Part shown: positions 11,455-21,110 of the stretch, one piece after another
Layout of the letters: each line of letters begins with the position of its first letter
Position numbering within the stretch: the first letter of the stretch is position 1
Assembly: GCA_018267545.1 (NCBI GenBank)
Contig: JAFDYG010000267.1
Location: 1 to 64,000 of the forward strand
Reading direction: 5' to 3'
Length of the DNA stretch: 64,000 bases
DNA from: Bacteroidota bacterium
GTDB taxonomy: Bacteria > Bacteroidota > Bacteroidia > Chitinophagales > Chitinophagaceae
Made by a program: the position numbers and the translations under genes
Notes under the pieces: generated by a model
The model's input: only the letters and a program-made list of their open reading frames with translations
Told to the model about the DNA's origin: nothing
Databases searched by the model: none

Positions 11455-12345
11455 ATGATTGCAAGAATCGGCCGTATCACACTCCGGGTAGCGCTAGGAG
11501 TATTAATCTCCTTTATTATCTTTCTGCTCATCTTCGACCGGTTGGTACAATTCCGGATGGATGATAAAGAGCTCCAGACCTTCTTCCATTCCAGAAAGCT
11601 CGAACCTCAAATCAGCTATTATAAAGCAAAGGGCCGCACGATCCGTTATCTCGGAGTAGGCACCAGTCCGGAGGCGACGATCCTGTTCATCCATGGGGCA
11701 CCCAGTTCGCTTTCCTATTGGAAGGGCTATCTTTCAGACAGTCTTTTGCTGGCGAGGGCAACCATGTACGCCGTAGACCGGCCGGGTTATGGATATTCCG
11801 GTCTGGCGGATGCAATGCCCGATCTGGCGATGCAGGCGGCGGTCATAAAACCGATTATTGATAGCCTGCACAAGGCGCATCATCCCATCATCCTGGTGGG
11901 TGTCTCTTATGGTGCGCCCATTGCCGCCCGGCTCGTCATGGACAATCCTCAGCTTGTGGACGGTCTGGTATTGATGGCTCCGCCGCTTGGTCCGGGGAGG
12001 GAAAAGATCTTCTGGTTTACGTACCTGGTAGAGAGTCCGTTTATCAACTGGTTTATCCCCCGGATGTTACAGACGGCCAATAAAGAGAAGGTGCATCATA
12101 GGGAAGAGCTGACGAAGATGCTGCCTTTGTGGGATAGTATACATATACCCGTTGCTTATCTGCAGGGGGAAGACGACGGTCTGGTAGATACTACGAATGT
12201 GAGCTTTGCGAAGGAGCATTTAAGAAATGCCCCCTCCCTGGAGATACGTATGTTACCGGGAAGGGGACATTTGATTGCATTTGCAGAAAAGGATCAGATC
12301 GACAAGGCGATACTTGATATATTGAATAAGTGTGAGGGGCGTTAG
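11455..12345 (+). CDS. Membrane-anchored alpha/beta hydrolase
   Basis: 296 residues. An N-terminal signal anchor (LRVALGVLISFIIFLLIFDRLV) is followed by an alpha/beta-hydrolase domain: oxyanion LFIHGAPSSLSYW, nucleophile elbow GVSYGA (Ser near residue 150), acidic residue in QGEDDGLVD, and catalytic His in GRGHLIAF. Substrate not deducible. It follows the sigma factor by 22 bases and may be co-transcribed. Its stop overlaps the stop of the convergent rtcB copy by four bases. Confidence 0.8.
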   Translation: MIARIGRITLRVALGVLISFIIFLLIFDRLVQFRMDDKELQTFFHSRKLEPQISYYKAKGRTIRYLGVGTSPEATILFIHGAPSSLSYWKGYLSDSLLLARATMYAVDRPGYGYSGLADAMPDLAMQAAVIKPIIDSLHKAHHPIILVGVSYGAPIAARLVMDNPQLVDGLVLMAPPLGPGREKIFWFTYLVESPFINWFIPRMLQTANKEKVHHREELTKMLPLWDSIHIPVAYLQGEDDGLVDTTNVSFAKEHLRNAPSLEIRMLPGRGHLIAFAEKDQIDKAILDILNKCEGR

Positions 12346-13742
12346 TCCGCCATTCGAACGATCTTTGGCGTGAATAATCCCAGGACCTCTACCAATTGCT
12401 TTTGGCTTTTCATCACTTCTTCGATATCCTTATAGGCCTGGGGCGCTTCATCCAGGCCGCCTCCAATCAGTCGAACGCCATGCGCTTCCAGCGCTGCGTT
12501 GAGTCTGTCTTCGGAGATCGAGGCCGAAGCCGCCGACCGGCTCATTTTCCGGCCTGCCCCATGTGAGGCAGAGGAGAGAGAGGCGGGTTCCCCCTTACCT
12601 TTTACGATATAACCCGATGCGGTCATCGAGCCGGGGATGATTCCCAGGACATTGGTTCCGGCAGGGGTCGCGCCTTTCCGGTGGACGATCACCTCCCGGC
12701 CATCGTGCTGTTCCTTCCAGGCGAAGTTGTGGTGATTACCGGCGCGTCTGATCGGTTTGCGGCCGATCGCTTTTGCCAGCTTGTCGTGGATCAATTCGTG
12801 ACAAGCCTCTGCATAGTCACCGGCGAGGTTCATCGCCAGCCAGTACTCCATCCCTTCCTGTTCATCGAGGTCCAGCCAGGCCAGGTGATTTACTTCACCG
12901 GGCAGTCTGCGTTTGGCCCTCGCGATTCGGGTATAGTGATTCGCGATTGCGGCGCCGAGCGATCTCGAGCCGGAGTGCGACAGCAGGCCCAGGTATTTGC
13001 CGGGCTTTAGTCCCAACACCGGGTCTTCCGAATCGATTTGCACCTGGCCGAACTCGACGAAGTGATTTCCGGATCCAGAGGAGCCCAGCTGTCTTGCGGC
13101 TCGATGCCGAAGCCCTCTAAGCAAGGCGATATCTTCGAACTCGGAACGTTCGAGCACCTCGTGCGATGCGGCGCGGTCAAACTGTCTGCCGCCTCCAAAG
13201 AGGGTAGCTGCTTTTAGCTCTCTTACGAAGAAAGCTTCTTTTTGCAGCAGGTCTTTGGGGTCGATATCGAAAACCGACAGGTGCATGCGGCAGCCGATGT
13301 CCAGACCGACACCATAGGGTATCACGGCGTTATCCACGGCGAGCACTCCGCCGATCGGCAGGCCGTAGCCGCTATGGGCATCGGGCATAAGCGCACCGGC
13401 AGTGGCTACGGGTAGTTTGGCTGCCTGGTACATCTGGTTCATCGCTTCGGGTCCAACGTGTTCGTTGCCAAACACATTAAACGCTACGCCGGTTTTGTTG
13501 AGGAAGATTTCCATTCCCTCGGGGGCCTTTTTGGGCAACAGCTGTTGCGCAATCAGGCCTAGTACTGCATCATTCTCATATTCCATGGGGGATGCCAGGA
13601 TCTCTCGTAACAGGTTCATCACATTATCCTCCTTTTCAAATTTGTAGTTCTTTTCCATTACGTTCATGGCGATACTGATTACCGGTCCTTCCGGATAGCC
13701 GAGTGAACGTATGTTTTTGCTTTTTAATTTAAGCTTTGCCAT
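12342..13742 (-). CDS. rtcB: RtcB RNA-splicing ligase, copy 1 (last gene of the tRNA/RNA-repair unit)
   Basis: 466 residues, full length. RtcB joins RNA 2',3'-cyclic phosphate or 3'-phosphate ends to 5'-OH ends using GTP and Mn2+. Metal and catalytic residues are visible: Asp148 and Cys151 (DIGCRM), His227 (GSGNHF), His256 (LLSHSGSR), His337/338 (NHHNF) and the guanylylated His394 in SASHGAGRKMSR. It is probably active. It is collinear with a second RtcB at 18602: the six key residues fall at nearly the same positions. It follows the slipin gene by 93 bases that contain a long inverted repeat. Inferred job: reseal tRNAs cut by ribotoxins. Confidence 0.95.
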   Translation of the reverse strand: MAKLKLKSKNIRSLGYPEGPVISIAMNVMEKNYKFEKEDNVMNLLREILASPMEYENDAVLGLIAQQLLPKKAPEGMEIFLNKTGVAFNVFGNEHVGPEAMNQMYQAAKLPVATAGALMPDAHSGYGLPIGGVLAVDNAVIPYGVGLDIGCRMHLSVFDIDPKDLLQKEAFFVRELKAATLFGGGRQFDRAASHEVLERSEFEDIALLRGLRHRAARQLGSSGSGNHFVEFGQVQIDSEDPVLGLKPGKYLGLLSHSGSRSLGAAIANHYTRIARAKRRLPGEVNHLAWLDLDEQEGMEYWLAMNLAGDYAEACHELIHDKLAKAIGRKPIRRAGNHHNFAWKEQHDGREVIVHRKGATPAGTNVLGIIPGSMTASGYIVKGKGEPASLSSASHGAGRKMSRSAASASISEDRLNAALEAHGVRLIGGGLDEAPQAYKDIEEVMKSQKQLVEVLGLFTPKIVRMAD

Positions 13743-13757
13743 GATTTAAATTTTTAA

Positions 13758-13831
13758 AAGGACCGGCAGCGGCAGCGGTTGCGGCGACAGCAGCTGGTTG
13801 GGCTGGCTGCGTCCTGCGCTCGCCGGTCCTT
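13758..13831 (-). repeat. Long inverted repeat between slipin and rtcB
   Basis: AAGGACCGGC (13758-13767) is perfectly complementary to GCCGGTCCTT (13822-13831). The 54 bases between them contain further GC-rich stems. This could be an mRNA processing or stability element between two genes of the operon. On the minus strand the repeat is followed by TTTTAAAAATTT, so partial termination is also possible. Confidence 0.6.
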
Positions 13832-13835
13832 GTCT

Positions 13836-14936
13836 TTACTTCGGTGTGCCGAAGATCTGGCGGAGCTGGTCGATCAGTGCACCATTGCCGCTAAGGCTGA
13901 TGTTGTTGACCTTTTCCGCGATCTTTTCGACGTATTCCATTTCCTTCAGGCGGAACAGCATCGGGTTATCCTCCATCAGCTTAGCCGTGTTCAACAGGCT
14001 TCGCGTGCTGGCGGTTTCTTCCCGGCGCATGATCAGGTTGGCCTGCGCCTTCTTCTCGGCGACGAGCACCTGGTTCATGATGTCCCTTACCTCGCCGGGC
14101 AGGATGATATCCCGGATACCAAAGCCCGCGATCTGTACACCCAGGGAAGCGGCCTCCTGCCCTACCCTTTCGAGGATATAGGGACCGATGAGGTCCTTCT
14201 TCTCGAGCAGCTCGTCGAAGCTGAAGCCGGCGGTGTATTCTCTCAACGCCAGCTGGAAGGCTACATAGAGCTGACGCTCGTATTCCTTGTTCTGCAGCAA
14301 GGCCTTTTCGATATCGACGACCTGGTAGCGCGCCCAGGCGTTGATACGGAGGGCTGTCTTATCGCGGGTAAGGATTTCCTGGCCGTTGACTTCGAGCTGC
14401 AGTACGCGGGTATCGACCTTAGCTACTGAGACGGGGATGTTGTTCTTCCAGAAGAAGTACACACCACCCATTAGGATGCTGTGGAACTTTCCGTCCACGA
14501 ACAGGATTCCCTTTTCGTGCGCTTCGACGGCGCTGGTCCGTACGTAGGGTGCCACCAGGGGGCTGGTCAGCGTGTTACGGCTGATGTTTTCCGTGATTTC
14601 GACCTTGCCGATATCGGCGTGAACGAAATCGTATGTGACCATGCCCTTCCAGAAAGCGTAACGGCCAGCGTTCAATACTCTTGCCAAAAGGCCGTTCTCG
14701 TATACGAGGGCGATGGAATTGTCCTTTACTTCTACTATGTGAAGGGCTTCTGCCAGGGCAGGGTCCTTTAGGAGTACGGTGAGCTCGATGACGAAGCTGA
14801 AGGGCTTGTCCTTTTCATAGATGATCGCCGTTTCCTTAAATGACAGCCAGTGGCGCCCTTCTGTCAACATGCGGAGGTATACTCCGTTCTTAAACACCAA
14901 ACCAACCTGGTAGGCGTTGACTGTGATTAATCGCAT
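13836..14936 (-). CDS. Slipin, SPFH/band-7 family protein
   Basis: 366 residues. The N-terminal 150 residues hold a repeat-like beta region (YQVGLVFKNGVYLRMLTEGRHW and SIALVYENGLLARVLNAGRYAFW are internal relatives). The SPFH core follows at about 155-330 (VEAHEKGILFVDGKF, VDTRVLQLEVNGQEILTRDKTALRINAWARYQV, VGQEAASLGVQIAGFGIRDIILPGEV) with a helical tail (EKKAQANLIMRREETASTRSLL). No clear transmembrane helix is seen. SPFH proteins form membrane-bound oligomeric scaffolds. Slipins recur next to RtcB in bacterial RNA-repair loci. It may hold the repair machinery or tRNA substrates at the membrane. Confidence 0.85.
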   Translation of the reverse strand: MRLITVNAYQVGLVFKNGVYLRMLTEGRHWLSFKETAIIYEKDKPFSFVIELTVLLKDPALAEALHIVEVKDNSIALVYENGLLARVLNAGRYAFWKGMVTYDFVHADIGKVEITENISRNTLTSPLVAPYVRTSAVEAHEKGILFVDGKFHSILMGGVYFFWKNNIPVSVAKVDTRVLQLEVNGQEILTRDKTALRINAWARYQVVDIEKALLQNKEYERQLYVAFQLALREYTAGFSFDELLEKKDLIGPYILERVGQEAASLGVQIAGFGIRDIILPGEVRDIMNQVLVAEKKAQANLIMRREETASTRSLLNTAKLMEDNPMLFRLKEMEYVEKIAEKVNNISLSGNGALIDQLRQIFGTPK

Positions 14937-15204
14937 TGTTTTTTAGGTTTTAAAAGTTTAAAAAAAAGGGGCGGTCATGCCTGGTCATCCGGTTTCTGCG
15001 GAACCGGCCGGGAATTGGGCGGCCGTCGTTGGACGGCTGCCGGTCATTGCCGGGCGGTTGCAAGGCAGGTACAGGACTGCGTTGGGATGGACTTTGCCTT
15101 TGGCTTTTGGGCGGTTCGTTGAACCTGCCGGGCAGCCGCTGGTAAGTCATCCTTTAGCGGATCATTCAATCACGCCCCTTTGGCGTGGAGCCCATTTTTG
15201 GGAA
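14937..15204 (-). other. Structured non-coding stretch downstream of the tRNA-like modules
   Basis: No credible gene. On the minus strand it contains several hairpins: CACGCC-AAAG-GGGCGTG near 15172-15188, GGTTC-AAC-GAACC extended by GGC/GCC near 15110-15130, GCCGTC-CAAC-GACGGC near 15026-15041, and CCGGTT...AACCGG near 14988-15006. It lies between the tRNA-like modules and the slipin, so it is probably transcribed as part of the same RNA. The open minus frame here is proline/arginine-rich and looks like chance. Confidence 0.5.
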
Positions 15205-15222
15205 GGTGGGCGCTTCCGGATC

Positions 15223-15290
15223 CTACGTTATCAGCGTAGTGCTCTACCGTTGAGCTATTCAGTCTTAACTGAAATGGGATTCGAACCCAC
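15223..15290 (-). ncRNA. Permuted tRNA-like module 2 (Ile-GAT-like), acceptor stem capped
   Basis: Read 5' to 3' on the minus strand, the parts of a tRNA occur in the order T arm (GTGGG-TTCGAAT-CCCAT, 15290-15274), 3' acceptor strand TTCAGT, tetraloop TAAG, 5' acceptor strand ACTGAA (15273-15258), TA, D arm (GCTC-AACGGTA-GAGC, 15255-15241), A, and a full anticodon arm (CTACG-CTGATAA-CGTAG, anticodon GAT at 15232-15230). A normal tRNA starts at the acceptor and ends with the T arm. Here the ends lie in the variable region and the acceptor stem is a closed hairpin, so there is no CCA end to charge. No matching T arm or acceptor lies downstream, which rules out an ordinary tRNA-Ile. Confidence 0.7.
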
Positions 15291-15298
15291 ACACACTG

Positions 15299-15363
15299 TC
15301 CATCGCTCTAACCGCTGAGCTATCTTCCTGAGAAGAGAAGGATTCGAACCTTCGTCCTATGGA
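15299..15363 (-). ncRNA. Permuted tRNA-like module 1 (His-like), acceptor stem capped
   Basis: Order on the minus strand: anticodon-stem 3' strand TCCAT (15363-15359), variable AGGAC, T arm GAAGG-TTCGAAT-CCTTC (15353-15337), acceptor TCTTC, tetraloop TCAG, GAAGA (15336-15323), TA, D arm GCTC-AGCGGTTA-GAGC (15320-15305), G, anticodon-stem 5' strand ATGGA (15303-15299). ATGGA and TCCAT pair perfectly, so the RNA folds as a tRNA opened at the anticodon loop, with acceptor ends fused. The following bases CAGTG plus the preceding AA would give a GTG (His-like) loop, though with A instead of U at position 33. Bacterial YrlA Y RNAs carry a comparable tRNA mimic. Confidence 0.7.
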
Positions 15364-15488
15364 TTTTGTTTGCAAACACCACCGGGCAATAGCATACAGG
15401 GAGTTACTACACCTGCACTGCAGAGCGGTTAAGCTCGTGCCTGGCTTGCCTCGCCGGCGTCTACCTAGTTTTCCCTTGCGGGAATATC
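15364..15488 (-). other. Upstream flank of the tRNA-like modules
   Basis: 125 non-coding bases between the YkuK-like stop and module 1. They include TTCCC-GCAA-GGGAA (15484-15471), a stem with a GNRA-type tetraloop directly after the upstream gene, GAGC-TTAACC-GCTC near 15436-15423, and a GGTGG (15383-15379) that could pair with CCACC at 15209-15205 to close an outer stem around both modules. A Leu-like GGTAGACGC string near 15464 hints at another degraded tRNA, but no complete cloverleaf could be drawn. Confidence 0.4.
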
Positions 15489-15974
15489 TTATTGTACAAC
15501 TTTATTGGCACAGCTAGAGCTGGCAAAGGCGTGAGGCTTCGCTTTGAAAGCAAAACCCATCCCCATGATATAGCCCATGGCTTCCTTCAGTGCATCGTTA
15601 CTCTTGAAGTTCGGGTTGGTATTTATGTCGGCGTGTACTTCCATGTCTACACCATAGAGGGTAAACAATCTGCACAGCTGATAGGATACTTCCACGCTCT
15701 TCGCGACTTCTCGTAACATACGTTCCTTGACGCTCATCTTGTGCGTGGTCCGTTCAGGGAGGATGTACATAAAACCTCCTTTCCCTTTCCGGATAAACAC
15801 GATGACGGTGGCGAACTCGGTCACGGGGCCTTTTGCCTGGCTGTCAGTACCGATGCATACTTTGAGGGTATGGCCCGCCTGCTTTTCTCTTACCAGGACA
15901 GCTCTGACTTCGTCCTCGATATCCTGGCGGATAAGGGATCCGTCAAGCCGTCTCCAGCGCTGTTCCTGTTTCAT
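15489..15974 (-). CDS. RNase H-fold protein of the YkuK (DUF458) family
   Basis: 161 residues, normal length for the family. KVCIGTDSQAKGP near residue 38-50 supplies the first strand and acidic residue of the RNase H fold. It is followed by a second strand VTEFATVIVFIRKGKGGFMYILPERT, a helix with EVAKSVEVSYQLCRLF, and VEVHADINTNPNFKSN with another acidic residue (Asp in HADIN). The family is predicted to act on RNA or DNA, but activity is not well established. Its place between a basic protein and the tRNA-like RNA in an rtcB operon suggests handling of tRNA ends or fragments. This is inference. Confidence 0.75.
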   Translation of the reverse strand: MKQEQRWRRLDGSLIRQDIEDEVRAVLVREKQAGHTLKVCIGTDSQAKGPVTEFATVIVFIRKGKGGFMYILPERTTHKMSVKERMLREVAKSVEVSYQLCRLFTLYGVDMEVHADINTNPNFKSNDALKEAMGYIMGMGFAFKAKPHAFASSSCANKVVQ

Positions 15975-15993
15975 TGTTTTACATTTAAAAAAA

Positions 15994-16746
15994 TTAAAGT
16001 TGTTCGTCTTTTAGTTTGTCAAGGGTTCGGTAAAGTGGTTGGTTTTTCAAAGGGTTTCGGTATTTGGGAAGTTCAAAATCGTGGCACCACCATTTGTAAT
16101 GGCCCCTGGTCAGTTTTCTTTGTCTGTACTCGCAGGCATTTCGTTCCAAATAGTTATCGATTCTTTTTATGGCTTCTTCAAGATCTTGATCCAGTGCTTT
16201 TACCTTGTCTATCATGTTGGGCTGAATCTTTAGCACAAAGCGCCAGGGTTCACTAAACACATATTTCGCTACTAGCATAAAGCGCCCTCCGGTCCAATCA
16301 TAGGAGTAATGCACGTGGAAATGTGCTTTTTCCTCTTCTGTGAGGTTTAGCTTATTAAACTCGTAGCCATTCAACGTTTTGAGCTCCTGACCTTTTACGA
16401 CGTAGTACTTTCTGCCTCTCGAACGTTTTTTAACCAAAAAGTCCTTCCGGTGGCTCCAGCTCAGGGTATTGATCTTATCAAGGATTCCCTGGTAGAAGGC
16501 TGCGTACCTGCTGCCTGCGGCGTCTTGCCGCAATACGAAGGTCCGCTTCCAGCCACGCTGAATGGGAGGGATAAGGGGCACGGGTTCCAGGTTACGACGC
16601 TTGTTCCAAAGCATATGTCTCTCCCGGTGCAGCTTTAGCAGCTGCTTGTCGAAATCTTCGTACTGCATTCTTTTCTTTTGCCTTGCAGTACGGAGGCGGT
16701 AAGAGAGTATTTCCTCACCGTATTGACGAATAAGTTTTGTGTCCAT
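15994..16746 (-). CDS. Basic protein of unknown function in the RNA-repair operon
   Basis: 250 residues, rich in Lys, Arg, Trp and Tyr, with no signal peptide or membrane helix. Visible pieces: helical N-terminus (about 1-48, LRTARQKKRMQYEDFDKQLL), a central part with aromatic strands (RFMLVAKYVFSEPWRFVLKI), and a C-terminal basic segment RQRKLTRGHYKWWCHDFELP. The charge suggests nucleic-acid binding, and it lies 19 bases upstream of the YkuK-like gene and just after three tRNA genes. I recognise no family. It is not a TROVE/Ro protein, which would be about twice as long. It could be the Y-RNA or tRNA-binding partner of this locus. Confidence 0.7.
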   Translation of the reverse strand: MDTKLIRQYGEEILSYRLRTARQKKRMQYEDFDKQLLKLHRERHMLWNKRRNLEPVPLIPPIQRGWKRTFVLRQDAAGSRYAAFYQGILDKINTLSWSHRKDFLVKKRSRGRKYYVVKGQELKTLNGYEFNKLNLTEEEKAHFHVHYSYDWTGGRFMLVAKYVFSEPWRFVLKIQPNMIDKVKALDQDLEEAIKRIDNYLERNACEYRQRKLTRGHYKWWCHDFELPKYRNPLKNQPLYRTLDKLKDEQL

Positions 16747-16849
16747 AATGAATGATTTTTTCGCTGTCGAAAGCGCCAGCGCGCAGGCGCCGGTCTGTCT
16801 TGACGGTTCATTAAGGACTGTAGACTCTTTTTCATTTCATTCGTTTTTG

Positions 16850-16921
16850 TGGACGGAGCTGGACTCGAACCAGCACGGGCGGTTCTTCAAACCGCTGCTC
16901 TACCATTGGAGCTATCCGTCC
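16850..16921 (-). tRNA. tRNA-Phe (GAA)
   Basis: 72 bases in normal order with a complete cloverleaf: acceptor GGACGGA/TCCGTCC (7 of 7 pairs), D arm GCTC-CAATGGTA-GAGC, anticodon arm GCGGT-TTGAAGA-ACCGC (anticodon GAA), variable CCGT, T arm GCTGG-TTCGAGT-CCAGC, discriminator A. CCA is not encoded. Position 37 is G rather than the usual A. It is the last of three tRNAs in the leader region of the RNA-repair operon, about 100 bases before the basic-protein gene. Confidence 0.9.
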
Positions 16922-16953
16922 GTTTGTTGATCCGCCGGGACGGATCAGGTTAG

Positions 16954-17040
16954 CGGAGAGTAAAGGAATCGAACCTTTGTACCGGTTTCCCGGCAACCCA
17001 AGCTTAGCAGGCTGGTACATTACCGCTCTGTCAACTCTCC
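16954..17040 (-). tRNA. tRNA-Ser (GCT)
   Basis: 87 bases. Acceptor GGAGAGT/ACTCTCC is perfect, discriminator G as expected for serine. The D arm has a three-pair stem ACA/TGT. Anticodon loop CTGCTAA gives GCT at 17008-17006. A class II variable arm is visible (GCCGG-GAAA-CCGGT), T arm AAAGG-TTCGATT-CCTTT. The anticodon stem CCAGC/GCTTG has one C-U mismatch (an extra T in GCTTGG), unusual for a housekeeping tRNA. No encoded CCA. Confidence 0.88.
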
Positions 17041-17093
17041 GGGTTTGGGTGGCGCGGCCGGCGCTAGTGGTCGGGCCAAAATGGGTCATCGTG

Positions 17094-17177
17094 TGTGAGT
17101 GGTTGGATTCGAACCAACTTAGTTCGGAAACAACGGTTTTACAGACCGCCGCGACTCGCCGTCTTCGCCGCACTCAC
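17094..17177 (-). tRNA. tRNA-Tyr (GTA)
   Basis: 84 bases. Acceptor GTGAGTG/CACTCAC perfect, discriminator A. D arm GCGA...TCGC, anticodon arm GCGGT-CTGTAAA-ACCGT with GTA at 17142-17140, a long variable arm with GTT-TCCG-AAC, and T arm GTTGG-TTCGAAT-CCAAC. First tRNA after the leader terminator and the long hairpin at 17226-17266. The leader ORF upstream contains three TAT codons, which this tRNA reads. Confidence 0.92.
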
Positions 17178-17225
17178 GTTTATGGATATTGCATCTGCTC
17201 GTGGGAAATGGGCATACCTCTCCCA

Positions 17226-17266
17226 TCCGGAAATTCGTCCGATTTTGTTTCGGTTGAATTTCCGGA
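17226..17266 (-). other. Long perfect hairpin between attenuator terminator and tRNA-Tyr
   Basis: TCCGGAAATTC pairs with GAATTTCCGGA over 11 bases, with an inner CCGA/TCGG stem. No T tract follows on the minus strand. It sits 49 bases before tRNA-Tyr. It could be an RNase III or other processing site releasing the tRNA array, or a protein-binding structure on the leader transcript. Confidence 0.6.
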
Positions 17267-17270
17267 AAAC

Positions 17271-17296
17271 AAAAACCCCGCAATCTCTTGCGGGGC
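17271..17296 (-). terminator. Leader A intrinsic terminator
   Basis: On the minus strand, CCCCGCAA-GAGA-TTGCGGGG (17295-17276) forms an eight-pair stem with a GNRA-type loop followed by TTTTTG (17275-17270). It is a textbook rho-independent terminator, yet it lies between a promoter and tRNA-Tyr in the same direction, so read-through must be controlled. Its 5' arm GCCCCGCA can instead pair with TGCGGGGC at 17349-17342. Confidence 0.9.
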
Positions 17297-17431
17297 TTAT
17301 GTTTTATTGATATCGTGATTGATCAATGGATAGCATAATACGCCCCGCATCTGGTATAACTGCCTATCAGGCTAAACCAGGTTGTTTTGTTCATATGTGA
17401 AATTGCTTGGCGCATTTTGTAATAATTTTAA
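17297..17431 (-). promoter_or_regulatory. Leader A: ribosome-controlled attenuator of the tRNA/RNA-repair operon
   Basis: Transcribed leader from about 17431 to the terminator at 17271. The strand TGCGGGGC (17349-17342) is perfectly complementary over eight bases to GCCCCGCA (17296-17289), the terminator 5' arm. The two pairings exclude each other. A 30-codon ORF runs across TGCGGGGC and stops 17 bases after it. Further upstream CTGG and CCAG (17379-17350) can form a hairpin around GCC-TGATA-GGC. A paralogous leader with the same order of promoter, ORF, TGCGGGGC strand and terminator precedes the AAA gene (21143-21301). Stalled translation before TGCGGGGC would leave it free to block the terminator. 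This mechanism is inferred. Confidence 0.75.
17323..17415 (-). CDS. Leader peptide A, 30 residues
   Basis: ATG 17415-17413 in the conserved context ACAAAATGCG, stop TGA 17325-17323. The peptide starts MRQAISHMNKTTWF and ends TRCGAYYAIH. Codons include TAT three times, TTT, AGC, AGT, CAT twice, ATT and ATC, which are those read by tRNA-Tyr(GTA), Phe(GAA), Ser(GCT), and His/Ile-type GTG and GAT anticodons. These are the same five species encoded or mimicked in the operon. The related leader at 21196 encodes a different sequence but starts at the same place and ends ..RGAFYHP, so position and end are conserved. An internal ATG at 17394 could shorten it. Confidence 0.65.
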   Translation of the reverse strand: MRQAISHMNKTTWFSLIGSYTRCGAYYAIH

Positions 17432-17436
17432 CGATA

Positions 17437-17468
17437 CAAAGGTGTGAATATTTTTTCGATTACACCAA
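17437..17468 (-). promoter_or_regulatory. Promoter of leader A
   Basis: Minus strand: TTG at 17468-17466 (in ACTTGG), 21 bases, then CACCTTTG at 17444-17437, a Bacteroidota-type -7 box. The same two elements with exactly the same spacing and a conserved AATCG..AAATATT spacer precede leader B. The start of transcription is expected near 17431. It lies just after the WYL gene's stop codon at 17500. Confidence 0.75.
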
Positions 17469-17499
17469 GTTTTTTACAAACTATTTTTTTTCTTGCGTG

Positions 17500-18513
17500 C
17501 TAATCGTCGTATTTCAATCTCGTTTGTTCGAGCCTGTTTTTGATTTTCGACACGAGATGACGAGGGCCTAAAACCTTCATAGATTCACCAAAACCAAGGA
17601 TTTCTCTTTCTAATTCGAAGTTGAGGACGACGTCGATACGAATAGTGATTCCCGTTGCATCTTCGTCTAAAACTTTTTGTGAACGATGCAGTGGTTTTGT
17701 CAGGACATAGGGTGCATTATCCTTGTCGATGTGAAGAAAGACTTTGTGTGCGCGGTCTCTTTCGGACTTGGTTACGCCGATCAGATCGTTATAGTATTGT
17801 TCGAAGTCGACGCCCTTGTATTCGACGAAATCTATTGTATGACACTCCTTTAGAGAAATCATTCTGTCCAGCGCAAGCGTAAACAGGGGCGGCTTTCCGT
17901 CGATGCGGGCGATCAGGAACCAGCGGTTCCGGTATTCCTTCAGGAGATAGGGTGAACAGATAAAAAGCTGCGGCTGCTTTGCCCGGAAAGACTGGTACTC
18001 GATCTCCATCGGCTTCTTGTCGAGGATGGCCTGGTATAAGGGGGTGATATGTTCCAGCCCTTTTAGAAGCTGGTTGCCTTCGAGCTGTATGTGGCTTTTA
18101 TTGCGGTGGGTCGATTTATACAGGTTGTTTTCCAGGCGGGCGATCATATCGCTCATCTCGTCGAAGTAGCTGAAGCCGTTGAATTGTTTCAATACCCCCA
18201 CGATCTCTTTCATCTTTTCGAGATCGGTATCGGTAATTGGGGTGTTGGTGATGCTGTAGTCGGGGTCTTCGTAGCTGTAGTACTTCTTTTCCTTTACGAC
18301 GATGGGGGCGTTGTAGCCCAGCTTGTCGCTGCGCATCAGCTGGATATCGGCCTGTATGGTCCGTTTGCTTACGCCGGATTGGATGCCTTCGTTGTCGTAG
18401 AGGACTTCCGAGACCTTTTCGATCAGGTCTTCGAGGGTCCACTTGCGATAGCGGTTGCGCAGGCATTCGTCGATGGTCCGGTAGCGGATAAGGGCTAATT
18501 TGTTTATTGACAT
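17500..18513 (-). CDS. WYL-domain transcriptional regulator
   Basis: 337 residues. An N-terminal winged-helix/HTH part (about 1-75: TLEDLIEKVSEVLYD...VSKRTIQADIQLMRSD) is followed by a linker and a WYL domain (about 155-260: ILDKKPMEIEYQSF..., KEYRNRWFLIARIDGKPPLFTLALDRMISL) and a C-terminal WCX-type segment. WYL domains sense ligands, possibly nucleic acids or nucleotides, and are common beside RNA-repair and defence genes. It is divergent from rtcB copy 2 (88-base gap with a palindromic site) and directly upstream of the leader A promoter, so it can control both directions. Confidence 0.88.
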   Translation of the reverse strand: MSINKLALIRYRTIDECLRNRYRKWTLEDLIEKVSEVLYDNEGIQSGVSKRTIQADIQLMRSDKLGYNAPIVVKEKKYYSYEDPDYSITNTPITDTDLEKMKEIVGVLKQFNGFSYFDEMSDMIARLENNLYKSTHRNKSHIQLEGNQLLKGLEHITPLYQAILDKKPMEIEYQSFRAKQPQLFICSPYLLKEYRNRWFLIARIDGKPPLFTLALDRMISLKECHTIDFVEYKGVDFEQYYNDLIGVTKSERDRAHKVFLHIDKDNAPYVLTKPLHRSQKVLDEDATGITIRIDVVLNFELEREILGFGESMKVLGPRHLVSKIKNRLEQTRLKYDD

Positions 18514-18560
18514 CTTTTGGTTATCATTGATTTAGGGACGATTTTCAAAAAACTTTCATC

Positions 18561-18597
18561 TACGCAAATATACTGCGCAGATCGGAATACATCTTTG
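18561..18597 (+). promoter_or_regulatory. Promoter and imperfect palindrome before rtcB copy 2
   Basis: TACGCA-n7-TGCGCA (18561-18579) is an imperfect inverted repeat that includes CTGCGCAG (18573-18580), itself palindromic. It lies upstream of a -7-like CATCTTTG (18590-18597). The ATG at 18602 is only four bases after the -7 box, so the mRNA would be leaderless or nearly so. The palindrome is a candidate WYL-regulator site. Confidence 0.5.
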
Positions 18598-18601
18598 TCG
18601 T

Positions 18602-20020
18602 ATGAAAAAGATAAATGGAACAGACCTTTTAGCGATCGGTTTTCCGGAAGGGAAGCCGCTGGGTGTAGCTTTGAAGCTGCAGGATGCACGGGAGGATTTG
18701 AACAAGGAAGAATTGCTCGTATGGTTCAAGCAGATCATGGAGAAGCCGGAGATTTTTCTGGACGATGAAAAAGCGGAAGAACTGGCAGCGGCCCTGATCG
18801 AAGAAGCGAAGGCTTCCGAGGATGATACGATCGCCTTGAAGGAACAGGGCGGGGACTACGCGATCTATGGCGCCGAGAACATTGAAGATGGGGCTCGTAA
18901 GCAGATGGACGTAGCGATGAAGCTGCCGGTGACGGCGGCGGGGGCGTTGATGCCGGATGCGCACCAGGGCTATGGTCTACCGATCGGCGGGGTGTTGGCT
19001 ACGCGGAATGCGGTGATTCCTTACGGTGTGGGTGTGGACATTGGCTGCCGGATGGCTTTGTCGGTATTCGACATTCCGGAAAGTGATTTTGCAGAGAACT
19101 GGGCTAAGTATAAGCGAGAATTGATTGCGCATACCAAGTTTGGCGCCGGCGCGGGTTATCATGGGCAGTATAAGGCCGATCATGCCGTGCTGGAGAATGA
19201 GACGTTCAAGATGACGCCGTTGATTCGTCAGCTGCATGATAAGGCTGCGTCGCAGCTAGGTTCATCCGGTGGAGGTAATCACTTTGCAGAATGGGGGATG
19301 CTGGAGTTCAGCGAACGCGATGAGGTGTTGGGCATCGACCGGGGGCGATATGTCGCTTTGTTGTCGCATTCGGGTTCTCGTGGGTTTGGCGCTACGGTGG
19401 CCGGTCATTACACTCGGTTGGCGAAGGAGCTTTGTAAACTGCCGAAGGAAGCCGCTAACCTGGCCTATCTGGATTTGGATTCGGCAGAGGGGCAGGAATA
19501 TTGGCTGGCGATGAACCTGGCTGGAGACTATGCTTCTGCCTGTCATGAAATAATTCATCAGAAGCTGACCAAGGCCATTGGCGGACAGCTGCTCGCACGG
19601 GTGGAGAACCACCACAATTTCGCCTGGAAGGAAGTCTGGAATGGCGAAGAAGTTATCGTACACCGGAAGGGAGCAACGCCAGCGGCAAAGGGGGTGATGG
19701 GTATCATTCCCGGAAGCATGACGGCGCCTGGATTCCTGGTGCGTGGAAAGGGAGATGAAAAATCCATCCAGTCCGCTTCGCATGGGGCTGGGCGGCAGAT
19801 GAGCCGTACGAAGGCTATACAGACGATCTCGAAGGATCAGCTTCGGGCGGAATTAAAGACGCACGAAGTTACCCTTATAGGCGCAGGGCTTGATGAAGCG
19901 CCGATGGCCTATAAGGATATTCGTGTGGTGATGGCCGCACAGCAAGAGCTGGTGGATGTCGTAGCGACTTTCACGCCGCGCATGGTTCGTATGGCGGATG
20001 ATGGAAGCCGGGAAGACTAG
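18602..20020 (+). CDS. rtcB: RtcB RNA-splicing ligase, copy 2
   Basis: 472 residues. All RtcB residues are present: Asp146 and Cys149 (DIGCRM), His227 (GGGNHF), His256 (LLSHSGSR), NHHNF at 336-340 and the GMP-accepting His394 (SASHGAGRQMSR). Long stretches match copy 1 (HRKGATPA, GIIPGSMTA, DLD.EGQEYWLAMNLAGDYA), so the two are paralogues. It has its own promoter and, unlike copy 1, is not behind an attenuator leader. This suggests one ligase under a protein regulator and one under tRNA-level control. It converges on the AAA ATPase gene with a 31-base gap. Confidence 0.95.
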   Translation: MKKINGTDLLAIGFPEGKPLGVALKLQDAREDLNKEELLVWFKQIMEKPEIFLDDEKAEELAAALIEEAKASEDDTIALKEQGGDYAIYGAENIEDGARKQMDVAMKLPVTAAGALMPDAHQGYGLPIGGVLATRNAVIPYGVGVDIGCRMALSVFDIPESDFAENWAKYKRELIAHTKFGAGAGYHGQYKADHAVLENETFKMTPLIRQLHDKAASQLGSSGGGNHFAEWGMLEFSERDEVLGIDRGRYVALLSHSGSRGFGATVAGHYTRLAKELCKLPKEAANLAYLDLDSAEGQEYWLAMNLAGDYASACHEIIHQKLTKAIGGQLLARVENHHNFAWKEVWNGEEVIVHRKGATPAAKGVMGIIPGSMTAPGFLVRGKGDEKSIQSASHGAGRQMSRTKAIQTISKDQLRAELKTHEVTLIGAGLDEAPMAYKDIRVVMAAQQELVDVVATFTPRMVRMADDGSRED

Positions 20021-20051: not shown

Positions 20052-21110
20052 TTAGCGCCTGAAGCCTATCACACGGGCTTCGGGCTGCTCTTCCTGTTTT
20101 TCGTGCTGATTGGTGATCTCGGCTACTGTCATCGGTTTTGAGATGACGGTATCGAAGCCAAGGTGATTACTCAGCCGCTGGGCATGGGGGATTTCGAGTC
20201 TCCCAAATTCGTGTCGGGCGATCAGCCGTCCCTTGCGCAGCAGCGCGCTGTCGATCGTGGTTAGCGCGCTATTGAATGTACAGATCAGCTGTACGTTCAG
20301 GAAGTCTGCGAGCAGGCCGTCGGAGATATTCAACAGTGTCGATACGGACGAACTATGGTTGTGTCTCCTATCCATGATAATATTCTCTGCGTCTTCGACA
20401 ACCAGGATGGTGTTTTGGTTATTGATGAGCAATTCGATAAACTCTGGATCGGTGACGCTTCCTGCTACTGATGGTGAAAGGAAGAGGATTCTTTTCTTTA
20501 GTTTTCCGATCAGGTAGCGCAGATAGGTGGTCTTTCCCGAGCCAGGCAGGCCATGTAATAGCACGATACCCTTATCGTCTCTTTTCTGAAGGCGTTTGCG
20601 GATCAAGGCGTCCGTTTCCTTAAAGGCTTCGCCATAGAAAAGACCCAGGTCGAGCCGCCTTCTTTTGATCGCCATCGACTTTAGGCTCAGCCCGTACCTG
20701 TTACGGACGACCATATTGATCTCCAGCGGTTTTCTTCGGCGTCGTTCCCGGAATGAGGCGGCTTCCCTGGTGAAAAGGGTTACCAGTTCGGTTTGGTCTT
20801 TCAGGTGGAAGATCTCACAGCTACAGTAATCGAACTCCAAAAGGCAGTCATACTTCATCTGTACGAGGATAGTGCTGCATTCATATTTTTTGCTGCTGCT
20901 GTCGTAGTTACGGTTCTCATAAATCCGGTCGATCTGTTCCCCGAATTTTTTCTTAAAAGCTTCAAATGCTTTCAAGCCGTCGATCTGACCGATATAGGAT
21001 TGGTTGGGAAGCTGGTTATAGCTTTGCAGAAAGAGCGTCCTTGCGTCGATAAAGTAAGTGCCAATGAGCTCGCCTGCATTGATAATCTTGTGATTATATA
21101 AATTGTTCAT
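20052..21110 (-). CDS. AAA+ ATPase preceded by the second attenuator leader
   Basis: 352 residues. The first 160 form an unrecognised N-terminal domain (FIDARTLFLQSYNQLPNQSYIG... CSCEIFHLKDQTELVTLF... RRRRKPLEINMVV). The AAA core has Walker A GLPGSGKTT (187-195), Walker B ILVVEDAE (235-242), an ISDGLL helix, sensor-like CTFNSAL and an arginine in RKGRLIARHEFG. This resembles the BCS1/spastin-like classic AAA clade with single-ring unfoldases. It begins 31 bases after the terminator of leader B, whose architecture matches leader A, so it is probably switched on together with the tRNA/rtcB operon. A remodelling role for RNA-protein complexes is inferred. Confidence 0.85.
   Translation of the reverse strand: MNNLYNHKIINAGELIGTYFIDARTLFLQSYNQLPNQSYIGQIDGLKAFEAFKKKFGEQIDRIYENRNYDSSSKKYECSTILVQMKYDCLLEFDYCSCEIFHLKDQTELVTLFTREAASFRERRRRKPLEINMVVRNRYGLSLKSMAIKRRRLDLGLFYGEAFKETDALIRKRLQKRDDKGIVLLHGLPGSGKTTYLRYLIGKLKKRILFLSPSVAGSVTDPEFIELLINNQNTILVVEDAENIIMDRRHNHSSSVSTLLNISDGLLADFLNVQLICTFNSALTTIDSALLRKGRLIARHEFGRLEIPHAQRLSNHLGFDTVISKPMTVAEITNQHEKQEEQPEARVIGFRR

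What the first reader, a model, noticed from the sequence alone, without database searches (positions are those of the whole stretch)
15223..15363. Tandem tRNA-like modules with permuted halves and tetraloop-capped acceptor stems
In both modules the T arm precedes the D arm, and the two acceptor strands are adjacent and closed by TCAG or TAAG. Acceptor strands pair only in this permuted reading, and the split anticodon stem TCCAT/ATGGA of module 1 also pairs perfectly. The RNA thus looks like a tRNA opened at the anticodon and sealed at the acceptor end, the mirror of a tRNA cut by an anticodon nuclease. Bacterial YrlA Y RNAs are known to carry a tRNA mimic, but no Ro/TROVE gene is in the window and here two modules stand in tandem with readable anticodons (GTG-like and GAT).
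Basis: partly seen in the sequence, partly recalled or inferred. Interest (0 to 1): 0.92.

Follow-up and report, generated by a model that had tools for sequence, protein, structure and literature searches.

The report
Permuted tRNA-mimic RNA beside repair genes
On the minus strand, between genes of an RNA-repair operon, lies what looks like a structured non-coding RNA carrying two tRNA look-alikes whose halves are in swapped order, conserved in many related bacteria and probably serving as a tRNA decoy or scaffold for the repair machinery.

Summary
On the minus strand, 15363-15223 carries two tRNA-like modules in which T arm, acceptor hairpin and D arm follow each other, so the acceptor end is sealed. 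Module 1 is open at the anticodon; module 2 has a closed anticodon arm with GAT; the "GTG-like" anticodon of module 1 is only linker. Relatives support the permuted pairing strongly: in 134 modules adjacent acceptor strands pair at 88% (shuffled 51%, maximum 55%), while the ordinary-order pairing is at chance (53%, 44 tandem pairs). In a selected 42-sequence alignment 26 of 29 pairs have compensatory changes. The modules sit in what looks like a 520-nt RNA just upstream of a Band-7/SPFH gene and an RtcB ligase gene. The tRNA-like part matches the bacterial Y RNA YrlA below its cutoff, but no Ro/TROVE gene is near. A "novel tRNA-like molecule" of SPFH/Band-7 repair systems was, as I recall, announced in 2016 (Burroughs and Aravind, not readable here), so I file this as a variant of a known kind. 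Most likely role: tRNA-mimic scaffold or decoy of an RtcB/Band-7 repair system. The role and expression are inferred.

The parts
14960..15486 (-). whole structured non-coding RNA (borders inferred, expression not tested)
   Evidence: fills the 552-nt gap between the RNaseH-like and Band-7 genes; conserved blocks in relatives
15471..15484 (-). 5' hairpin TTCCCGCAAGGGAA
   Evidence: folded; a similar hairpin at the same place in many relatives
15397..15440 (-). 5' domain: stem 15440-15434/15425-15420 and stem 15415-15412/15400-15397 with conserved CAGTGCAG...CTGTATGCT
   Evidence: A2 helices 1 and 2, 9 of 10 pairs with double changes
15299..15363 (-). module 1 (OPEN): split anticodon stem, T arm, sealed acceptor hairpin, D arm
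   Evidence: YrlA 33.8 bits; covariation; model R1 123.7 bits, the window being one of its 42 training rows
15223..15290 (-). module 2 (CLOSED): T arm, sealed acceptor hairpin, D arm, anticodon arm with GAT
   Evidence: YrlA 35.1 bits; covariation
15190..15217 (-). H-type pseudoknot: GGAAG/CTTCC (15217-15213/15205-15201), loop GCCCA 15211-15207 with TGGGC 15194-15190
   Evidence: pattern in 84 of 92 loci (upper bound), 10 shuffles of the regions mean 15.7, max 24
14960..15181 (-). 3' domain closed by AAAGGGGCG 15181-15173 with CGCCCCTTT 14973-14965, then a T run to 14960
   Evidence: fold z -3.27, 0 of 200 shuffles as stable; stem in relatives with only a weak control
13836..14936 (-). Band-7/SPFH protein, 366 aa
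   Evidence: PF01145, E 2.9e-29; model
12342..13742 (-). RtcB RNA ligase 1
   Evidence: PF01139
15489..15974 (-). RNase H-like protein (PF04308)
15994..16746 (-). 250-aa protein without family match, found in 11 of 80 related loci
16849..17177 (-). ordinary tRNA genes Phe(gaa), Ser(gct), Tyr(gta)
17500..18513 (-). WYL-domain regulator
18602..20020 (+). RtcB RNA ligase 2 (closest to the RtcB found with TROVE and YrlA-like RNAs in relatives L140 and L141)
20052..21110 (-). AAA ATPase, also in 26 of 80 related loci

Best explanation
Minus-strand 15486-14960 encodes a non-coding RNA of a Bacteroidota RNA-repair operon. Shown by comparison of sequences: it carries two circularly permuted tRNA mimics. 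The first is open at the anticodon and built like the tRNA-like domain of the Y RNA YrlA; the second ends in a true-looking anticodon arm. The element is conserved directly upstream of one type of Band-7/SPFH gene, in most loci with RtcB and ordinary tRNA genes nearby. Inferred: it acts in trans as a scaffold and decoy. Because the acceptor end is sealed it cannot be charged or enter translation, yet the tRNA elbow and anticodon arm stay readable. It would thus recruit or divert tRNA-binding proteins (tRNA-cutting nucleases, RtcB, other tRNA enzymes) to a Band-7 assembly, much as YrlA links the Ro protein to PNPase. The anticodon arms, whose anticodon varies from species to species, would be bait or sensor for anticodon nucleases, whose cut ends RtcB can reseal.
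For: Permuted acceptor pairing 0.884 against 0.509 shuffled; ordinary-order 0.530; tertiary pair 15-48 is G-C 91, A-U 31, U-A 4 of 141 modules (about 77 matches expected from the column totals, my calculation). 26 of 29 and 19 of 24 pairs with double changes. Anticodon-arm-like hairpins in 57 of 92 loci against mean 2, max 4 in 10 shuffles of the regions; base 37 follows base 36 as in real tRNAs (50 of 52 A after A/U, 18 of 20 G after G/C). Model R1 at 60 bits or more: 19 of the 22 family genomes with a full-length Band-7 relative, 0 of the other 76; of its 42 training rows only the window's own occurs among those 22. RtcB within the fetched flank in 54 of 80 named loci, at least one ARAGORN tRNA in 64 of 80. 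Parallel in print: in Anabaena a 26-tRNA operon, rtcB and a slipin gene rise together under translational stress.
Against: No expression, binding or cleavage data. The RNA could act in cis on Band-7. Published YrlA was not cut by the tRNA nuclease in Salmonella (PMC7790460, passage), which speaks against simple bait for the open module (those authors suggest competitive inhibition as one possibility). By the strict rule no anticodon-arm-like hairpin was found in 35 of 92 loci. 26 of 80 loci show no RtcB in the fetched flank and 16 of 80 no ARAGORN tRNA, some because contigs end. Three loci (L083, L094, L095) keep Band-7 without the permuted RNA.
Confidence: 0.5

Rival explanations
1. The RNA is a cis-acting leader of the Band-7/RtcB transcript: cleavage or protein binding at the tRNA mimics changes folding of the 3' closing stem with its T run and so read-through into Band-7.
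For: Directly upstream of Band-7 on the same strand: loci fetched by Band-7 and, without that bias, the 19 strong R1 matches in whole genomes. Closing stem followed by 8 T ending 23 nt before the start codon. No Bacteroidota-type -7 motif TANNTTTG on the minus strand between 12342 and 17500, in keeping with one long transcript.
Against: The closing stem spans over 200 nt, unlike a simple terminator, and the terminator scan reported none on this strand there. Evidence for the stem in relatives is weak by the shuffled-partner control (23 of 90 perfect, shuffled mean 8.2, max 16; 8 or more of 9 pairs in 65, shuffled mean 52, max 60). Tandem tRNA mimics with a kept tertiary pair are more than a leader needs.
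Confidence: 0.25
2. It is a Y RNA of the YrlA family working with a Ro (TROVE) protein encoded elsewhere in the genome.
For: Sub-threshold YrlA matches to both modules and in 19 of 25 loci scanned at E 0.1 or better; a TROVE match on another contig of the same assembly (30.2 bits).
Against: Of 20 genomes chosen for the test 10 have a TROVE match; among the 10 without are seven that carry the RNA (G001, G008, G035, G039, G063, G085, G086). In three TROVE loci of relatives 7 of 8 YrlA-like matches beside the gene cover the whole model 1-114, whereas the window's modules match 23-88 and 24-84.
Confidence: 0.1
3. It is a permuted tRNA gene: the RNA is circularised (perhaps by RtcB), cut at the acceptor loop and becomes a working tRNA.
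For: Half order as in permuted tRNA genes; RtcB next door.
Against: Open modules carry no anticodon loop, and in tandem pairs the next T arm starts 7-21 nt after the D arm (median 13, 49 pairs), leaving no room. Acceptor loops of 2-15 nt with variable sequence and varying stem length.
Confidence: 0.05
4. It is a decayed tandem array of ordinary tRNA genes; junctions of tandem tRNAs look permuted.
For: Real tandem Val-Val and Lys-Lys tRNA genes do give R1 matches of 40-49 bits, and ordinary tRNA genes lie nearby.
Against: In the ordinary reading acceptors pair at chance (0.530, better than the permuted reading in 1 of 44 pairs) and the anticodon arm between D and T arm is missing; compensatory changes keep the permuted pairs.
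Confidence: 0.01

Closest known systems
YrlA bacterial Y RNA (Rfam RF02553)
   Same: T arm, sealed acceptor hairpin and D arm in the same order, open at the anticodon side; both modules align to it; an RtcB gene nearby, as in rsr-yrlBA-rtcBA operons (PMC7790460, passages).
   Different: No Ro/TROVE gene nearby; matches in the window stop within positions 23-88 of 114; often two modules in tandem (47 of 92 loci), in the window the second with an anticodon arm; extra 5' domain, pseudoknot and 3' domain.
SPFH/Band-7-associated 'novel tRNA-like molecule' of RNA-repair systems (Burroughs and Aravind 2016, NAR; abstract recalled, paper not held)
   Same: A tRNA-like RNA beside a Band-7 gene and an RNA ligase gene; very probably the same kind.
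   Different: Its published structure and alignment could not be compared, so whether permutation, tandem modules, anticodon arms and pseudoknot are already in print is unknown to me.
Circularly permuted tRNA genes of algae and archaea (titles and abstract starts seen in a search listing; details recalled)
   Same: 3' half precedes 5' half.
   Different: No anticodon loop in the open module; no sign of maturation to a tRNA.
Anabaena trn operon / TrcR regulon (PMC10272220, abstract and passages)
   Same: Backup tRNA array, rtcB and a slipin (Band-7) gene act together under translational stress.
   Different: The tRNA operon is on a megaplasmid and rtcB on the chromosome; a ribbon-helix-helix regulator rather than WYL; the term tRNA-like does not occur in its main text.
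Vault particle (major vault protein, SPFH-containing cage with a small RNA; PMC13100048 and PMC13347060, passages; the small RNA from an abstract start)
   Same: Beta repeats, SPFH domain and long helix in one chain; among the 50 entries shown it is the only family aligned from model residue 3-4 to 317.
   Different: Only two extra repeats; alone they match SPFH subdomains of prohibitin and erlin slightly better than vault repeats, all weakly. Vault kinship not shown.

Membership tests
YrlA Y RNA (RF02553) | permuted tRNA-like domain | tested here: met
YrlA Y RNA (RF02553) | score at or above Rfam gathering cutoff (69 bits) | tested here: not met
   35.1 and 33.8 bits; but YrlA-like RNAs in three TROVE loci of the same bacterial family also score only 35-49 bits
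YrlA Y RNA (RF02553) | basal Ro-binding stem (model ends 1-22 and 89-114) | tested here: not met
   matches 24-84 and 23-88 in the window; 3 of the 25 loci scanned gave a whole-model 1-114 match (L003, L008, L009; the 25 include the window's own copy and the TROVE locus L031)
YrlA Y RNA (RF02553) | Ro/TROVE gene nearby | tested here: not met
   whole assembly (94.7% complete): one match, on another contig
YrlA Y RNA (RF02553) | binds Ro/Rsr and PNPase | not testable with these tools
   needs binding assays
tRNA (RF00005) | acceptor strands at the two ends of the gene pair with each other | tested here: not met
   ordinary-order pairing at chance; non-pair marks in the acceptor stem of the 15266-15329 match
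tRNA (RF00005) | score at or above Rfam gathering cutoff (29 bits) | tested here: met
   two matches at 30.2 bits, one without the acceptor (model 8-63), one with mismatched acceptor strands
tRNA (RF00005) | tRNA core: paired T and D arms, tertiary pair 15-48 | tested here: met
Permuted tRNA gene | anticodon loop rebuilt when the ends are joined | tested here: not met
   open modules of 49 tandem pairs: 7-21 nt from D arm to next T arm, no anticodon loop
SPFH/Band-7-associated tRNA-like RNA (Burroughs and Aravind 2016) | lies with a Band-7 and an RNA ligase gene | tested here: met
SPFH/Band-7-associated tRNA-like RNA (Burroughs and Aravind 2016) | matches the published structure | not testable with these tools
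   paper not held
Vault (major vault protein) | N-terminal vault repeats before the SPFH domain | tested here: inconclusive

The most novel reading that the evidence does not exclude
A bacterial ribonucleoprotein in which a soluble, vault-like SPFH cage is organised around an RNA that displays permuted, uncharged tRNA mimics with species-specific anticodon arms as bait and alarm for tRNA-cutting nucleases, coupling damage sensing to RtcB repair and release of backup tRNAs.
Probability: 0.12. Interest if true: 0.92.

Novelty: new variant of a known kind. Interest (0 to 1): 0.72.

Why it matters
It shows an RNA element that has kept a tRNA-like core, including a covarying tertiary pair, while its chain order is permuted so that it can never be charged, and it ties such mimics to RNA repair outside the Ro/Y RNA system. 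The variable anticodon arms make a concrete prediction: they should be read by anticodon nucleases or anticodon-loop enzymes. If so, bacteria carry a dedicated decoy or tripwire for attacks on tRNA, together with a ligase and spare tRNAs. In Rfam 15 the only family reaching its cutoff here is tRNA, barely and in the wrong order, so annotation pipelines would miss the element or call it degenerate tRNA.

Tried and rejected
Ordinary-order tRNAs, tandem tRNA junctions and a permuted pre-tRNA were tested and rejected (rivals). Folding energy alone was not convincing (plus strand z -2.43; minus strand z -1.95). The strict pattern for a host tRNA-Ile with the same anticodon arm found only the RNA itself (one search used a mistyped pattern and found nothing); the assembly may lack rRNA-linked tRNAs, so this is inconclusive. 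The shuffled-partner control for the long-range 3' stem is weak because the stem sequence itself is conserved. PADLOC gave only generic WYL models and a weak Cas3c match, all to the WYL regulator. NCBIfam gave only sub-cutoff SPFH and RtcB models. R1 matches of up to 57.8 bits away from Band-7 are a mixture: YrlA-like RNAs beside TROVE genes, YrlA-like RNAs without one (L138, L145), junctions of ordinary tandem tRNAs, and others not checked; the tally of 83 of 98 genomes at E 0.01 must not be read as presence of this RNA. Vault kinship of the Band-7 protein was pursued and left open (vault protein was not among the 50 rows shown for the N-terminal part).

Rows dropped before counts: 4 of 102 loci as duplicates (L063, L073, L075, L103; checked); 5 of 146 parsed rows judged by hand to be upstream ordinary tRNAs or misparses (L033 -689, L034 -712, L045 -571, L047 -589, L097 -777); 7 of 141 modules with an acceptor segment under 14 nt in the acceptor test; also L034 and L054 as near-duplicates. 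Alignment A2 used 42 of the 57 candidate rows (rows with four or five pairs in the split stem and an acceptor stem of five or more; three of the 15 left out, L102, L106 and L108, because their 5' domain looked different, the others to thin the set). A4 used 27 of the 30 candidate rows; eight closed modules without the pseudoknot pattern had been left out before. Both sets were thus chosen for modules that already pair, and their percentages lean high. One search did not select on acceptor or anticodon pairing, but module detection used T- and D-arm motifs. The hairpins were required to have a purine at 37, U at 33 and A at 38.

Literature: ten searches. No title or abstract start in their listings was about a Band-7-associated tRNA-like RNA; the library lacks the paper I recall, so no claim of absence from print is made.

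Full report
WHAT IS THERE. The stretch is read on the minus strand. In 5' to 3' order it shows TCCAT, a five-base variable piece, a T arm, an acceptor hairpin closed by TCAG, U8-A9, a D arm, one base and ATGGA (15363-15299); an eight-base linker; then a second T arm, an acceptor hairpin closed by TAAG, U8-A9, a D arm, one base and an anticodon arm with loop CTGATAA (15290-15223). ARAGORN reports three ordinary tRNA genes nearby but nothing here. Rfam's tRNA model gives two matches barely above its cutoff (30.2 bits against 29), one lacking the acceptor and one with mismatched acceptor strands. Rfam's YrlA model aligns to both modules from position 23 or 24 to 84 or 88 of 114, at 35.1 and 33.8 bits, under its cutoff of 69.

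SETTING. The gap from 15488 to 14937 lies between an RNase H-like gene and a Band-7/SPFH gene, followed by RtcB, all on the minus strand. Upstream on the same strand are a protein without family match, three tRNA genes and a WYL regulator. A second RtcB lies divergently at 18602-20020 and an AAA ATPase at 20052-21110. The only minus-strand match to the Bacteroidota -7 motif (motif recalled) from 12342 to 18600 is at 18565-18572, just upstream of the WYL gene, which fits one co-oriented operon but proves nothing, since the motif is no more frequent in the window than chance.

RELATIVES. The Band-7 protein finds full-length relatives (46-67% identity) in 21 of the 97 other family genomes searched, 22 of 98 with its own; weaker or partial matches bring the total to 36 of 98. 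After removing 4 duplicates, 98 loci remain. A script looking for T arm plus D arm found 141 modules in 92 of them. By eye three more (L021, L056, L069) carry modules; L094 and L095 have an ordinary-order tRNA-Tyr-like sequence right before Band-7 instead, and L083 (only 226 nt of upstream DNA) has a similar T arm. Of the 92 loci 44 have one parsed module, 47 two and one three; in the 31 loci where both an open and a closed module were called, the open one comes first. Rfam's YrlA model matched at E 0.1 or better in 19 of the 25 loci given to it.

PERMUTED OR ORDINARY. With a fixed rule (first six bases after the T arm against the last six before U8) adjacent strands pair at 0.884 in 134 modules; re-dealing partners among loci gives 0.509 on average and 0.552 at most in 1000 shuffles. 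In 44 tandem pairs the ordinary reading pairs at 0.530, the permuted reading of the same modules at 0.917 and 0.833; the ordinary one is better in 1 of 44. The split anticodon stem of 49 first modules pairs at 0.883 against 0.662 (maximum 0.755), while a local anticodon arm there pairs at 0.380; in second modules the local arm pairs at 0.837. On alignment A2 (42 sequences, selected for pairing) 26 of 29 pairs show changes on both sides, 96.6% of cells pair, and no slid version exceeds 50.3%. On A4 (27 closed modules, likewise selected) 19 of 24 pairs do so, with 98.0% paired.

A tRNA CORE. The long-range pair between bases 15 and 48, far apart in the chain, is G-C in 91, A-U in 31 and U-A in 4 of 141 modules; my calculation from the column totals gives about 77 matches if the bases were independent, against 126 seen. 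This points to a real tRNA-like fold in spite of the permutation.

ANTICODON ARMS. Between the first module and the 3' pseudoknot 57 of 92 loci have at least one hairpin of five pairs with a loop N-U-NNN-R-A; shuffled regions give a mean of 2 and a maximum of 4 (10 shuffles). A few of the hits lie on acceptor hairpins rather than anticodon arms. Anticodons vary (GAA, CAA, GUU, GAU, CAG, GUA, UUU, CAU and others), and base 37 follows base 36 as in real tRNAs: A after A/U in 50 of 52, G after G/C in 18 of 20. Several Flavobacteriaceae loci (L102, L108, L109, L110) have two such arms in a row, and several Chitinophaga loci have an arm without a second tRNA core. In the window the anticodon is GAU.

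REST OF THE RNA. A 5' domain with the conserved string CAGTGCAG...CTGTATGCT has two covarying stems. After the anticodon arm comes a hairpin whose loop pairs downstream; this pseudoknot pattern is found in 84 of 92 loci, against a mean of 15.7 and maximum of 24 in shuffled regions; a minority of those 84 pick another place, so the figure is an upper bound. In the window a stem AAAGGGGCG with CGCCCCTTT followed by a T run closes the 3' domain 23 nt before Band-7. Similar stems occur in relatives but the control is weak.

LINK TO BAND-7. A covariance model of the 5' domain plus open module (R1) was run on the same 98 family genomes. At 60 bits or more it matches 19 genomes, all among the 22 with a full-length Band-7 relative and in each case within about 650 nt upstream of it, and none of the other 76. 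Of the model's 42 training rows only the window's own occurs in these 22 loci. Of the remaining three, G023 and G018 have weaker matches at the locus (45.6 and 29.3 bits) and G067 none listed there. Other matches of 39-58 bits include RNAs in loci with TROVE genes (G006, G026, G055, G058, G062, G065, G068, G077, G089; positions, Rfam YrlA matches for G026, G055 and G089) and junctions of ordinary tandem tRNA genes (G001, G008, G031, G071). In G026 and G055 the TROVE locus carries a WYL regulator and an RtcB closest to the window's second RtcB. RtcB thus seems to have two alternative partners in these bacteria: Ro with Y RNA, and Band-7 with this RNA. This is an inference from gene order.

NEIGHBOURS. 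In the 80 named loci an RtcB lies within the fetched flank in 54, the RNase H-like gene in 37, the AAA gene in 26, WYL in 21 and the 250-aa protein in 11; 64 have at least one ARAGORN tRNA, in some an array of more than ten just upstream. In Anabaena a silenced array of 26 tRNAs, rtcB and a slipin (Band-7) gene are raised together under translational stress or loss of the repressor TrcR (PMC10272220 abstract and passages; PMC9938897 passage).

HOW IT MOST LIKELY WORKS. Shown by comparison: the permuted tRNA fold, the sealed acceptor, the anticodon arm, and the bond with Band-7. Inferred: such an RNA cannot be charged but should be bound by proteins that read the tRNA elbow or the anticodon arm. 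In the YrlA system the tRNA-like domain is a docking module for PNPase while the stem holds the Ro ring (PMC8394870 passages); Salmonella YrlA was not cut by the DNA-damage-induced tRNA nuclease and was proposed as a possible competitive inhibitor (PMC7790460 passages). By analogy I think this RNA is a scaffold and decoy that brings tRNA enzymes or attackers to a Band-7 assembly with RtcB; the closed anticodon arms add bait for anticodon readers. A cis-acting leader is the main rival. Nothing here shows expression.

NOVELTY. I recall the abstract of Burroughs and Aravind 2016 as naming SPFH/Band-7 modules with a cognate novel tRNA-like molecule. The paper is not held. The kind is therefore probably known; the permuted, tandem, anticodon-bearing build with its covariation is what this report adds, with the caveat that I could not check how much of it is in that paper.

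Noticed in passing
window 13836-14936 (-): The Band-7 protein looks soluble and has two extra N-terminal beta repeats before its SPFH domain, an arrangement like the vault protein; weak when the N-terminal part is tested alone.
   Followed up: partly
L050, L053, L060, L065, L111 (upstream of Band-7): Arrays of more than ten ordinary tRNA genes precede the tRNA-like RNA, like a spare tRNA set.
   Followed up: partly
L140, L141 (G055, G026): TROVE genes with 2 and 4 YrlA-like RNAs, an RtcB and a WYL regulator in the same bacterial family; all these YrlA scores are below Rfam's cutoff.
   Followed up: partly
L138:5054-5164: A whole-length YrlA-like match (41.4 bits) inside an array of ordinary tRNA genes next to AAA and RtcB genes; no Band-7 match in that 10-kb stretch.
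   Followed up: no
L145:4890-5122: Two YrlA-like matches between a WYL gene and an RtcB gene with no TROVE match on that contig.
   Followed up: no
L094, L095 (last 100 nt before Band-7): Instead of the permuted RNA there is an ordinary-order tRNA-Tyr-like sequence with an odd D arm right before Band-7.
   Followed up: no
G000:C547:21881-22384: The window's own assembly has a weak TROVE match on another contig with no YrlA match within the 19 kb examined.
   Followed up: partly
L102, L108, L109, L110: RNAs of Maribacter and other Flavobacteriaceae carry two anticodon arms in succession with different anticodons.
   Followed up: no
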